A DNA stretch of 64,000 nt from Pleurocapsales cyanobacterium LEGE 10410. Its GTDB lineage: Bacteria > Cyanobacteriota > Cyanobacteriia > Cyanobacteriales > Xenococcaceae. Shown piece after piece: positions 4,838 through 54,736 of this stretch. The stretch lies in NCBI GenBank assembly GCA_015207195.1, contig JADEXJ010000002.1, positions 1 to 64,000 on the forward strand, given 5' to 3'. Every line of letters begins with the position of its first letter. Position 1 is the first letter of the stretch. The notes beneath the pieces are model-generated. The model made no database searches. It was given only the letters and a program-made list of their open reading frames with translations, and was not told where the DNA came from. The position numbers were made by a program, and so were the translations under genes.

Positions 4838-5164
4838 TTAGCCAAGTTTGACTGCCGTTCCCGTGGCAGTGATCAACAGTAGTACGCCTTTATCGTCAAC
4901 GTTGATTGTACCCGTATCTATTTCAATCCCAATGACGGCATCTGCATTCAATTTTTGGGCGCGCTGCATCAGCTCATCAATAGCTTTCTGCTGTCCTTTT
5001 TCAAATACCCTTTCGTAGCTTCCAGTACGTCCACCAATAGTATCTCTGATTCCCGCAAAAAAATCGCGTAAAACGTTAGTGCCATAAACTACCTCGGCAG
5101 TAACAACTCCCAGATAGGCTTCAATGGCTTGGTTTTGAATCGTGTCGGTTGTGGTGACTAACAT
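4838..5164 (-). CDS. YbjQ/UPF0145 family heavy-metal-binding-domain-like protein
   Basis: 108 residues, the full length of the small YbjQ family. Recognisable segments are EAYLGVVTAEVVYGTNVLRDFFAGIRD and RAQKLNADAVIGIEID, followed by a beta-rich tail ending TGTAVKL. YbjQ proteins form pentameric rings; despite the old heavy-metal-binding label their function is unproven. The gene stands alone on the minus strand between the glycosyltransferase and the coiled-coil gene. Confidence 0.88.
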   Translation of the reverse strand: MLVTTTDTIQNQAIEAYLGVVTAEVVYGTNVLRDFFAGIRDTIGGRTGSYERVFEKGQQKAIDELMQRAQKLNADAVIGIEIDTGTINVDDKGVLLLITATGTAVKLG

Positions 5165-5238
5165 CTATATTAATAGTAGGATGAGCTTAATTGATTTTCT
5201 GATGAGTATTATAGCTTTTGCGTAACGTCAGTTAATCA

Positions 5239-5898
5239 TTAGCCTTCAACTTTTCTGACTTTAAATTCTAGTAAGTTAACTTGCTGGCGCAGATCTTTGT
5301 TCTCAGTTTTTAAAACAGCAAGCTTTTTTTGCGCCCTACGAAAATGCCCTTTATAAGCCCCCAAACTTTTGTTACTCATTCCCAGTCTTTCGCGACGTTT
5401 TACTTCCCTAGCATACTGACGCTGTAGTTTTTTATATGCGGTTTGTAGTTCTTTTAAACCACCTTTACATTCAGACTTGAGCTTTTTTAGTTCGCGATCG
5501 CGGGTAGTAACCATCTTGTTTAAATATTCGATCTTGACTAGCATTTGCCGATCGAGATTGTTGGTTTTTGCCTGTTCGATTGCTCCTTGATAGCTCTGAT
5601 GAATCCAATCGTGTTGCGCCTTAAAAGCTCTTCTAGTAGCTTCATACTTGATTGTATTTAAAACCGCTTCTTTATAAATTCCTTTATGCTTTGCCTTGAT
5701 CTCAATTAGTAGCCTGTCGTAGTTTGTAGCATTGTGTCGCAGACTATCACAGTTAGCTTCGATATATTTAACGCGATCGCCCGTATTAGAGTCGATAATA
5801 TAAGCGGATGTACTCTCCCCTCGTGGGGGATGGCAGACAATCCGATCTTTCCAACTTTGAATTACTTCCTGTAGCGTCTGTTGGGTATTAATAATCAT
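5239..5898 (-). CDS. Uncharacterised coiled-coil protein (intact paralogue)
   Basis: 219 residues, no family recognised. The N-terminal 55 residues form a compact region with W-K-D-R-I-V-C-x-P-P-x-G-E, then a YI..NCDSLRH segment. A KEAVLNTIKYEATRRAF helix follows, and from about residue 110 to the end the protein is a Lys/Glu/Gln-rich predicted coiled coil. A second gene with the same architecture (6251-7060) lies 352 nt upstream on the same strand and carries an in-frame stop, so this may be the only working copy. It is basic overall. A role in binding or scaffolding is only a guess. Confidence 0.75.
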   Translation of the reverse strand: MIINTQQTLQEVIQSWKDRIVCHPPRGESTSAYIIDSNTGDRVKYIEANCDSLRHNATNYDRLLIEIKAKHKGIYKEAVLNTIKYEATRRAFKAQHDWIHQSYQGAIEQAKTNNLDRQMLVKIEYLNKMVTTRDRELKKLKSECKGGLKELQTAYKKLQRQYAREVKRRERLGMSNKSLGAYKGHFRRAQKKLAVLKTENKDLRQQVNLLEFKVRKVEG

Positions 5899-53046: not shown

Positions 53047-53075
53047 GTACAGACGTTCCATGGAACGTCCTCTAC
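53047..53075. repeat. Degraded copy of the 28-bp palindrome family
   Basis: The core ACGTTCCATGGAACGT is exact. The outer arms differ from the copy at 43749-43776 by a few bases. It follows the porin stop. Confidence 0.75.
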
Positions 53076-53083
53076 TGGCTTCA

Positions 53084-53140
53084 TACTCCCTACTCCCTAC
53101 TCCCTACTTACTACTTACTACTTACTACTCCCTACTTATT
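53084..53140. repeat. CTACTCC/CTACTTA heptamer tandem repeat ending at the nucleoside hydrolase start
   Basis: About eight tandem units run up to the ATG at 53141. An upstream frame through the repeat gives only a Leu/Tyr/Ser/Thr-rich leader and is not taken as coding. Confidence 0.88.
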
Positions 53141-54298
53141 ATGACCACCACCAACTCCACTCCTCTGATTATCGATGACGACGGTAGCCAAGACGGAATG
53201 ACGGCAATAGCGTATATGCTGGCAAATTCCAAGTTTGACGTTGAAGCCATTACCATATCCAACGGTATTGCCCGCCCCGAAATCTTTGATGACAACTTGC
53301 TACGAATGCTTGACCGCCTAGATGATTTGGATATTCCCGTTGGCGTAGGGCGATCGACTCCTTTGGCAGGAGACAACGAATTTCCCGACTTTATTCGCGA
53401 TGCTTCCGATACGTTTTGGTCGCCATATATATCTTTACCAGAAGAAGTTCCAGACGTTGAAACGGAAAATGCAGTAGATCTAATTATCGAAACGGTTAAA
53501 GACTCCCCCGAACCAGTAGCTATCCTAGCCACAGGACCTTTGACCAATATCGCCGAAGCCTTACGCCGTGACCCCAGCATTATTGACAATATAGAAGTAG
53601 TGCAGATCATGGGTGGGGCAGTATTCACCGAAGGCAACTTGCCCGTACTTCCCGATCCTCCTTTTTCTACCAATACTGCTGCTGAGTTTAATATTTGGAT
53701 CGACCCCGTAGCAGCACAAGAAGTATTTGATGCAGGAGAAGAGGGATTGAAAATTCAGCTTACCCCCCTGGATGCTACTAATGAAATTGAATTCGATCGC
53801 GAGGATTACCAAGCTTGGTTAGATACGGGTACGCCCGAAAGCGTCATTGCTGCGGAATTCTTAGACTATGCCCTGGAGGTAATTCAAAGCGATAATGACC
53901 CCAATCCAGTTTGGGACTTGGTGGCTGCGATTAACCTTAGCGAACCAGAGTTTTCGCCAGAAACATCGTTACACATTGATGTCGATACTGAATCAGCCCC
54001 AGGAGACACTCAAGGAGAAACCGAACCCGTTCCCGACTTACCGCCAAACGTTCTAGTGTCTCTCAATCCTAGTTTCGATAATCTAGATTTCGATAGCGAT
54101 CGCGTCTTCTCTTATTATGACTCTGTAATTCAAACCGCAGCAAGCAGGCAAGATAGGTATGGTCGTTCGGAAATAAAATATTTAAGTACTGTTAACATTG
54201 CCGAACTACAAACACAAAGCGATCGCCTGGCTAGAGATTATCGACAATTAGACACTAAAATTCAGCAAGCAAATTGGAACACCGAGTTAGTAGAATAA
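53141..54298 (+). CDS. Nucleoside hydrolase family protein
   Basis: 385 residues from ATG 53141. The Asp cluster, usually DxDPGxDD, is DDDGSQDG here: the first and third calcium/ribose Asp positions are kept and the last is Gly. Other landmarks are present: GPLTNIAEALR, QIMGGAVF, AEFNIWIDPVAA and a WDLVAA segment for the C-terminal Asp. Family members split nucleosides into base and ribose. The gene is the likely source of bases for adenine deaminase and xanthine dehydrogenase in this locus. The long C-terminal tail (about 300-385) is unusual. I take the start after the heptamer repeat, since the upstream frame is low-complexity. Confidence 0.84.
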   Translation: MTTTNSTPLIIDDDGSQDGMTAIAYMLANSKFDVEAITISNGIARPEIFDDNLLRMLDRLDDLDIPVGVGRSTPLAGDNEFPDFIRDASDTFWSPYISLPEEVPDVETENAVDLIIETVKDSPEPVAILATGPLTNIAEALRRDPSIIDNIEVVQIMGGAVFTEGNLPVLPDPPFSTNTAAEFNIWIDPVAAQEVFDAGEEGLKIQLTPLDATNEIEFDREDYQAWLDTGTPESVIAAEFLDYALEVIQSDNDPNPVWDLVAAINLSEPEFSPETSLHIDVDTESAPGDTQGETEPVPDLPPNVLVSLNPSFDNLDFDSDRVFSYYDSVIQTAASRQDRYGRSEIKYLSTVNIAELQTQSDRLARDYRQLDTKIQQANWNTELVE

Positions 54299-54315
54299 GC
54301 AAAGTTGGTAACTAA

Positions 54316-54443
54316 TACATAAGAGGCGGATGCAACCCGTCAACTGGGAAAGTTGAAAAAGATAGGTTTTTGATACCTATTTCTTTGGCGTAGGTAACGG
54401 GCAATACCTGATGGGTTCAAGTCCCTATGTACAATTCAAGTCC
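54316..54443 (+). ncRNA. Putative structured, tRNA-like RNA of unknown class
   Basis: Several complementary segments nest. TACATA (54316-54321) pairs with TATGTA (54426-54431). AACCCGTC (54334-54341) pairs with GATGGGTT (54410-54417). Inside are three hairpins: AACT/AGTT (54342-54345/54351-54354), ATAGGT/ACCTAT (54362-54367/54375-54380, 7-nt loop TTTTGAT) and AGGTA/TACCT (54392-54396/54405-54409). GGGTTCAAGTCCC resembles a tRNA T-arm, and the 7-nt loop resembles an anticodon loop, but the T-stem is too short and no acceptor with CCA fits. TTCAAGTCC is repeated at 54416 and 54435. It could be a degenerate tRNA, a leader element or a small RNA. Confidence 0.4.
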
Positions 54444-54736
54444 AGCAATGTAACAAAAGTAATGTGCATTGTTAATGTTACTACCATGTATCGATCTGTT
54501 GTCTTAGTGAGGGTGGGTTTGGGGATTTGATACTTTGTTGATTTTGATTATATCTACGCACGAAAAATTTAAAAACAAGCGTTGCTCTGATTAGGATAAT
54601 AAATAAGCGATTATTTCTAATTTGGGAAAGTAGAGCGATCGCATTTGTCTCCTGGTTAAATATAAGTTCTGTTGATAGCGATTTTTGCCAGCTCAAGCAT
54701 TTATATTTAATTTTTTTTGGTACTTTGGAGACAGAT

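What the first reader, a model, noticed from the sequence alone, without database searches (positions are those of the whole stretch)
54316..54443. Compact tRNA-like or multi-branched RNA of no recognised class
An 8-bp closing stem (54334-54341 with 54410-54417) encloses three hairpins, and an outer 6-bp stem (54316-54321 with 54426-54431) can form. One hairpin has a 7-nt loop TTTTGAT with U and A at anticodon-loop positions, and GGGTTCAAGTCCC looks like a T-arm, but a proper cloverleaf cannot be drawn. It may be a decayed tRNA with a long variable region, a riboswitch-like leader of the DUF362 gene, or a small RNA of the nitrogen locus.
Basis: seen in the sequence. Interest (0 to 1): 0.6.

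Follow-up and report, generated by a model that had tools for sequence, protein, structure and literature searches.

The report
Widespread structured RNA beside DIP1984 genes
A stretch first read as an odd tRNA-like sequence is one copy of a roughly 240-letter folded RNA, absent from the RNA family library we searched, that sits right after a gene of unknown function (DIP1984) in many kinds of bacteria, sometimes near RNA-repair genes.

Summary
Window ~54298-54539 (+) holds one copy of a ~240-nt structured RNA family without an Rfam 15 entry. It begins at the stop codon of DIP1984 (DUF6847) coding sequence. A covariance model built here matches 79 of 80 named DIP1984 loci from cyanobacteria, Chloroflexi, Paenibacillus, Clostridia, Acidobacteria, Planctomycetes and others (31 of the 80 were training sequences). 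In 388 cyanobacterial genomes the RNA rings in 26 and the gene in 27, 25 shared. On 33 sequences 93.3% of paired cells are standard pairs, 36 of 40 pairs show double changes, covariation 0.553 against 0.235 shuffled. The fold has a long closing stem, two loop pseudoknots and an optional tRNA-like T hairpin. 29 of 80 loci carry RtcB, Pnkp, RlaP, band-7, NADAR or Ro60-like genes within ~5 kb. I propose a DIP1984-RNA ribonucleoprotein acting in RNA-damage responses, a Ro/Y-RNA analogue. The RNA class and its link to DIP1984 are shown; transcription, binding and function are inferred. In this genome only the last 60 codons of DIP1984 remain, fused to a nucleoside hydrolase.

The parts
54298..54539 (+). 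Whole structured RNA, from the 5' strand of closing stem P0 to its 3' strand; ends are inferred from base pairing, not from transcript data
   Evidence: Model R1 matches 54305-54517 at 157.9 bits (a training sequence); blastn to L003 and L004; P0
54298..54305 (+). P0, 5' strand AGCAAAGT, overlaps the last base of the stop codon
   Evidence: Pairs with ACTTTGTT (one G-U); P0 permutation test over 54 sequences 0 of 5000; positions
54532..54539 (+). P0, 3' strand ACTTTGTT
54312..54324 (+). P1a, 5' strand (window copy has mismatches in the middle)
   Evidence: 10 + 2 covarying pairs in A3; window pairs listed
54495..54507 (+). P1a, 3' strand
54329..54333 (+). P1b, 5' strand GATGC, next to conserved internal loop GGCG
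   Evidence: 5 of 5 pairs with double changes, 99.4% paired; positions
54488..54492 (+). P1b, 3' strand GTATC
54336..54338 (+). Pseudoknot A, 5' strand CCC, pairs with GGG 54346-54348 in the P3 loop
   Evidence: 3 of 3 pairs with double changes, 93.9% paired (positions)
54340..54356 (+). P3 hairpin TCAACT-GGGAA-AGTTGA, loop GGG in pseudoknot A
   Evidence: 6 of 6 pairs with double changes; positions
54362..54380 (+).
   Evidence: Sequence; absent (gapped) in many relatives in alignment A3
54392..54409 (+). P4 hairpin AGGTA-ACGGGCAA-TACCT with the GGGC loop 54399-54402
   Evidence: 6 of 6 P4 pairs with double changes in A3; in A3 the window row is slipped by about one column at P4, so this hairpin is read from the sequence
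54413..54425 (+). Optional T-arm-like hairpin P5 GGG-TTCAAGT-CCC
   Evidence: 3 of 4 pairs with double changes; motif in 47 of 77 relatives
54440..54443 (+). Pseudoknot B, 3' strand GTCC, pairs with loop GGGC 54399-54402 (one G-U)
   Evidence: 97.7% paired, but only 1 of 4 pairs has double changes and 1 never varies; loop and partner change together in L003, L051, L083, L112
54116..54295 (+). Coding sequence for the last 60 residues of DIP1984/DUF6847, fused in frame to a nucleoside hydrolase
   Evidence: 82% identical to L003 residues 93-152, no N-terminal part elsewhere in the window; PF20935 positions 82-141
53165..54052 (+). Inosine-uridine nucleoside hydrolase domain (PF01156) of ORF 53060-54298; not part of the RNA

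Best explanation
The window carries one copy of a structured non-coding RNA family (~240 nt) that is the partner of the DIP1984 (DUF6847) protein. Shown: the RNA lies directly 3' of the DIP1984 gene on the same strand in many phyla, and it folds into a long closing stem (P0, P1a, P1b around a conserved internal loop) that encloses an H-type pseudoknotted hairpin, a hairpin whose GGGC loop pairs with a downstream GCCC, and an optional tRNA-like T hairpin. Inferred: gene and RNA are transcribed together; DIP1984, a small four-helix bundle, binds the RNA in a stable RNP; the RNP works in the response to damaged RNA, most likely tRNA, as a functional analogue of bacterial Ro60 with Y RNA, the optional tRNA-like hairpins serving as docking or mimicry elements. 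In this genome the RNA looks intact but DIP1984 is reduced to its C-terminal 60 residues, so the local system may be altered or decaying. My odds: RNA class tied to DIP1984 ~0.95; RNP with DIP1984 ~0.6; RNA-damage role ~0.35.
For: Covariation: 93.3% of cells paired, 36 of 40 pairs with double changes, score 0.553 vs 0.235 shuffled, 0 of 500, slid versions at most 0.123; 19 of the top 20 of 17,826 column pairs fall in the helices; P0 0 of 5000 permutations. Linkage: R1 in 79 of 80 DIP1984 loci, 48 of the 49 not used for training; 26 RNA genomes and 27 gene genomes of 388, 25 shared and adjacent. Context: 29 of 80 loci with RtcB, Pnkp, band-7, Ro60-like, RlaP or NADAR within ~5 kb (names); tRNA arrays of 9-21 genes in 6 of 11 loci.
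Against: No transcript, binding or phenotype data. 51 of 80 loci show none of the named repair genes within the ~5 kb held, many positives are relatives (all 8 Pnkp loci are Paenibacillus), and no matched control loci were counted. TROVE (PF05731) is in 5 of 13 RNA-bearing and 3 of 10 other genomes tested, so no link to classical Ro60 is seen. DIP1984's fold matches only 3kdq, function unknown. The own genome has no full-length DIP1984, no TROVE and no Ro60-like protein.
Confidence: 0.55

Rival explanations
1. It is a bacterial Y RNA proper (YrlA kind), bound by Ro60/Rsr through a conserved stem, with a tRNA-mimicking module.
For: A divergent Ro60-like gene lies within ~5 kb in 6 of 80 loci, identified by fold; RtcB in 12 of 80; a T-arm-like hairpin in 47 of 77.
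Against: No YrlA or Y RNA match over the RNA in 15 sources at relaxed thresholds; Ro60-like gene absent near 74 of 80; PF05731 shows no link; the constant neighbour is DIP1984.
Confidence: 0.1
2. It is a cis-acting element: a 3'-UTR structure or riboswitch that controls DIP1984 (or the next gene) and has no life as a separate RNA.
For: Fixed place beside the DIP1984 stop codon (median 19.5 nt from the end of the gene match to the model start); P0 overlaps the stop codon (window).
Against: Downstream genes differ between loci; the element is downstream of the gene it would control; in the window it persists although most of DIP1984 is gone.
Confidence: 0.15
3. DIP1984 and the RNA form an RNA-protein toxin-antitoxin or plasmid-maintenance pair, loosely like type III systems.
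For: DIP1984 on 369 plasmid records, 340 of them Acinetobacter, and on phages; a pseudoknotted RNA encoded next to a small protein.
Against: The RNA is single and downstream in 79 loci, not upstream repeats as in type III (recalled); most loci found are not on plasmids by title; DIP1984's fold resembles no nuclease.
Confidence: 0.12
4. Decayed tRNA.
For: T-arm motif and a 7-nt anticodon-like loop.
Against: No tRNA call; another fold is conserved over many phyla.
Confidence: 0.01

Closest known systems
Bacterial Y RNA / YrlA with Ro60 (Rsr) in rtcB operons
   Same: Long closing stem with internal loop, tRNA-like hairpin in many members, RtcB and Ro60-like genes near part of the loci
   Different: No Rfam YrlA or Y RNA match over the RNA; fixed partner gene is DIP1984, not Ro60; pseudoknots; longer
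tRNA / tRNA-like domain of tmRNA
   Same: T-arm-like hairpin and, in some, an anticodon-like hairpin
   Different: No conserved acceptor stem found; T-arm optional; no tRNA or tmRNA call at the RNA
Other large structured bacterial RNAs in Rfam
   Same: Large, multi-helix, tied to particular genes
   Different: No family reaches its gathering score in the window; at relaxed thresholds only VIS1 (15.6 bits, gathering 100) overlaps it, by chance in my view

Membership tests
tRNA | Cloverleaf recognised by a tRNA finder or Rfam tRNA model | tested here: not met
tRNA | Acceptor stem conserved in relatives | tested here: not met
Bacterial Y RNA / YrlA | Match to Rfam YrlA or Y RNA models | tested here: not met
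   No match over the RNA in 15 sources; one weak YrlA match in L015 lies elsewhere in a tRNA array
Bacterial Y RNA / YrlA | Encoded beside a Ro60/TROVE gene | tested here: not met
   Ro60-like gene near 6 of 80 loci; PF05731 in 5 of 13 RNA-bearing genomes and 3 of 10 others, 8 of those 10 checked for the RNA by blastn only
Bacterial Y RNA / YrlA | Binding by Ro60 | not testable with these tools
   needs protein and RNA
Bacterial Y RNA / YrlA | tRNA-like module | tested here: inconclusive
   T-arm motif in 47 of 77; no full cloverleaf
Leader or riboswitch of the downstream gene | Conserved downstream gene family | tested here: not met
   The largest non-DIP1984 cluster is in 12 of 80 loci, on both sides of the gene
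Type III toxin-antitoxin | Tandem RNA repeats upstream of a toxin endoribonuclease (recalled) | tested here: not met
   One RNA per named locus, downstream (two copies only in L125); fold search gives only 3kdq
HEARO | Match to RF02033 | tested here: inconclusive
   No match in the own genome, but nothing rang in the control genomes either; no Rfam match over the RNA

The most novel reading that the evidence does not exclude
DIP1984 and its RNA are an unrecognised ribonucleoprotein spread across bacteria (cyanobacteria, Chloroflexi, Bacillota, Acidobacteria, Actinomycetota, Pseudomonadota, plus plasmids and phages): a second kind of Ro/Y-RNA-like machine that senses or sorts damaged tRNA. The so-called septicolysin of Acinetobacter plasmids would be its protein half, not a toxin.
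Probability: 0.35. Interest if true: 0.92.

Novelty: categorically new. Interest (0 to 1): 0.8.

Why it matters
A large structured RNA of this breadth with a fixed protein partner is rare, and this one matches none of the 4227 families of Rfam 15. It gives DIP1984, a conserved protein with a 2009 crystal structure and no function (3kdq), a likely partner, and ties part of the loci to RNA repair, so the function becomes testable. It may also correct a label: DIP1984 is on many Acinetobacter plasmids (340 of 369 matching plasmid records), and papers on such plasmids list 'septicolysin' genes. That these are the same gene is my inference; no sequence of a gene so labelled was compared.

Tried and rejected

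Led nowhere: exact-pattern scans of the viral and genome collections (0 matches each); window DNA and a relative's RNA against plasmids and phages (no match); TROVE and Ro60-like protein in the own genome; a profile of the Ro60-like family against PDB sequences gave nothing, while single-sequence phmmer gave weak TROVE matches (E 0.005); intrinsic-terminator scan (3 of 77, shuffled 0.0); the paper search was too loose to say anything (5 of 21,094 listed).

Weak points of my own counts: the anticodon-hairpin survey was flawed (its anchor also matched the 5' end), so only its T-arm count is used; that count covers 77 of 80 loci, those with the 3' anchor. The P4/partner listing covers 50 of 57 RNAs and picks a wrong hairpin in a number of rows; it is used only for the examples named. 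For alignment A3 I dropped 10 odd sequences (44 of 54 listed), then 13 more that mostly lack the T-arm, and added L048 and L054, giving 33; pair statistics lean towards that architecture. R1 was trained on these 33, window included. The helices were drawn by eye from the alignment before the scan, except column pair 24-220, which I added; no call records the drawing. The scan listed only pairs at least 75% complementary; one search has no such filter.

Full report
The letters quoted are present, but by energy the stretch folds no better than shuffles (z -1.06, 28 of 200 as good). ARAGORN finds no tRNA and no Rfam family reaches its gathering score in the window. At relaxed thresholds two weak matches appear near it, GcvB (17.5 bits, gathering 42, outside the RNA) and VIS1 (15.6 bits, gathering 100, overlapping its 3' part); I take both as chance.

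RELATIVES. A search of 291 genomes of the order (own included) found the sequence in 2 others: L003, same genus, and L004, another family. In L003 and L004 it begins right after the stop codon of a gene of PF20935/DUF6847, NCBI name DIP1984. A pattern from its most conserved part, one mismatch allowed, hit 13 of 388 genomes of the class. 12 of those 13 loci carry DIP1984 coding sequence beside it; the thirteenth, L006, looks like a group II intron and its genome has no match to the later model.

THE FAMILY. Searching named genomes for DIP1984 gave 80 loci, the best 80 of 308. In 74 of 80 both end motifs of the RNA were found downstream of the gene. From 33 sequences (alignment A3) I drew helices. 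In a scan of 17,826 column pairs, all of the top 10 and 19 of the top 20 lie in them (one of the 19 was added to the helices after a first look). Pair counting gives 93.3% standard pairs, 36 of 40 pairs with double changes and a covariation score of 0.553 (shuffled 0.235, sd 0.010, 0 of 500; slid versions at most 0.123). The outermost stem P0, too variable to align, was tested by permutation over 54 sequences: own flanks score 1010.5, the best of 5000 shuffles 781.5. The window's own P0 is at the 0.906 quantile of cross-pairings, so for the window alone P0 is weak.

ANATOMY. P0 closes the RNA and in the window overlaps the stop codon. Next come a conserved GGTA motif and a long stem P1a-P1b split by a conserved internal loop. 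Inside P1 lie: ACCC, which pairs with the loop of hairpin P3 (pseudoknot A, 3 of 3 pairs with double changes); an optional anticodon-like hairpin; P4, whose GGGC loop pairs with GCCC further on (pseudoknot B; less varied, 1 of 4 pairs with double changes, but loop and partner change together in L003, L051, L083 and L112); an optional T-arm-like hairpin P5 (motif in 47 of 77); and a conserved 3' domain for which I found no convincing helix. Then follow GTGAGGGTGGG and GGGG.

DISTRIBUTION. Model R1 matches 79 of the 80 named loci on the strand of the gene. 78 of the 79 start 0 to 289 nt after the end of the gene match, median 19.5; L121, where the gene match is cut short, overlaps it. The exception is L052. 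31 of the 80 were training sequences; of the other 49, 48 match, some weakly (L121 25.9 bits, L099 34.4). In 388 genomes of the class R1 rings in 26 and PF20935 passes its cut-off in 27, with 25 in common and next to each other. Of the two gene-only genomes one, G476, has a weak RNA (38.2 bits) and one, G006 (the contig of L052 by its length), has none. The RNA-only genome G544 has a poorly matching 5' part and no DIP1984; the letters upstream look transposase-like by eye. In nine annotated records chosen from plasmids and phages, R1 finds the RNA after DIP1984 in Mycobacterium branderi (89.5 bits), Paracoccus (89), Picosynechococcus (97.2), Streptomyces (71.2), an Enterococcus plasmid and an Enterococcus phage record (44.9 each, a compact form), Psychrobacter (25), and only weakly in Acinetobacter lwoffii and A. 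baumannii plasmids (15.4 and 14.4 bits, E 0.003 and 0.007). For the last two the further support is the core GCGAGTA / CCATGTACTGA with an 11-bp closing stem, and a different 13-bp stem (G-U pairs included) at the same place in Psychrobacter; I regard the Acinetobacter form as probable, not shown. A viral contig carries DIP1984 and two diverged copies of the RNA (39.3 and 20.8 bits, L125).

NEIGHBOURS. Within the ~5 kb held on each side, 29 of 80 loci have one or more of RtcB (12), Pnkp-like (8), band-7 (7), a Ro60-like protein (6), RlaP, 'RNA repair pathway DNA polymerase beta family' (4), and NADAR (4) (names). 51 of 80 have none. Many positives come from related genomes (all 8 Pnkp loci are Paenibacillus), and I counted no matched control loci. 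The Ro60-like protein escapes Pfam's TROVE model; its AlphaFold model is poor (mean pLDDT 65.6), yet its five best PDB matches are all Ro60/Rsr chains (2nvo, 1yvp, 9l5y twice, 9nen; E 2e-8 to 3e-7, TM about 0.5). True TROVE (PF05731) shows no link: 5 of 13 RNA-bearing genomes and 3 of 10 others. Six of 11 cyanobacterial loci have 9 to 21 tRNA genes around the pair. In Anabaena such an array is silent until translation is stressed (PMC10272220, abstract and passages).

MECHANISM. Shown: conserved fold, fixed link to DIP1984, RNA-repair genes near part of the loci. Inferred: co-transcription, binding by DIP1984 (four-helix bundle, mean pLDDT 90.9; only 3kdq of unknown function matches at E below 0.001) and a role in handling damaged RNA. 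The nearest working analogue is Ro60 with Y RNA: Y RNA tethers Rsr to PNPase in Deinococcus, and YrlA has a tRNA-like domain (passages of PMC7790460); a ROT/TROVE protein with a tRNA-like partner is called a platform for RNA repair (passage of PMC7824862). By the tests made this RNA is not a member of that family.

THE WINDOW COPY. The RNA scores 157.9 bits (a training sequence) but P1a has several mismatches. The upstream ORF 53060-54298 is an inosine-uridine nucleoside hydrolase (PF01156) fused in frame to the last 60 residues of DIP1984, 82% identical to L003. PF20935 gives no other match in the genome. Whether the RNA still works there, or the fusion is an assembly fault in a 392-contig genome, is open.

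LITERATURE. In the open library DIP1984 occurs in one paper, as the name of a hypothetical plasmid protein (PMC10889530, one passage), and DUF6847 in none. 'Septicolysin' occurs in 24 papers, of which I saw a listing of 20 and passages of PMC9240704. In the main text of PMC8632094, a survey for new bacterial RNAs, the words RtcB, Y RNA, Paenibacillus, Arthrospira and Chloroflexi do not occur (word search only). Burroughs and Aravind 2016 and Chen and others 2014 on RNA repair and bacterial Y RNAs are known to me by recall and were not read. Most subscription papers, preprints and supplements were not searched, so an earlier description elsewhere cannot be excluded.

Noticed in passing
window 53060-54298 (+): One ORF joins an inosine-uridine nucleoside hydrolase (PF01156) to the last 60 residues of DIP1984/DUF6847.
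   Followed up: partly
L125 6002-6177 and 6803-6982 (viral contig): Two diverged copies of the RNA about 800 bases apart, downstream of a DIP1984 gene at 5001-5471.
   Followed up: no
L047 3122-4609 and relatives in L045, L046, L048, L049, L059; L018 6488-7993: A divergent Ro60-like protein family of cyanobacteria not caught by Pfam's TROVE model.
   Followed up: partly
L150 3501-3962, L158 4001-4462 (Acinetobacter plasmids): DIP1984 genes on plasmids of the kind on which papers list 'septicolysin'; a weak RNA match follows each. Identity of the two names is inferred.
   Followed up: partly
L019, L022, L023, L025, L026, L027: DIP1984 and the RNA sit within or beside arrays of 9-21 tRNA genes.
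   Followed up: partly
L146 1950-2400 (genome G544): An RNA copy with a poorly matching 5' part, no DIP1984 beside it and transposase-like letters upstream by eye.
   Followed up: no
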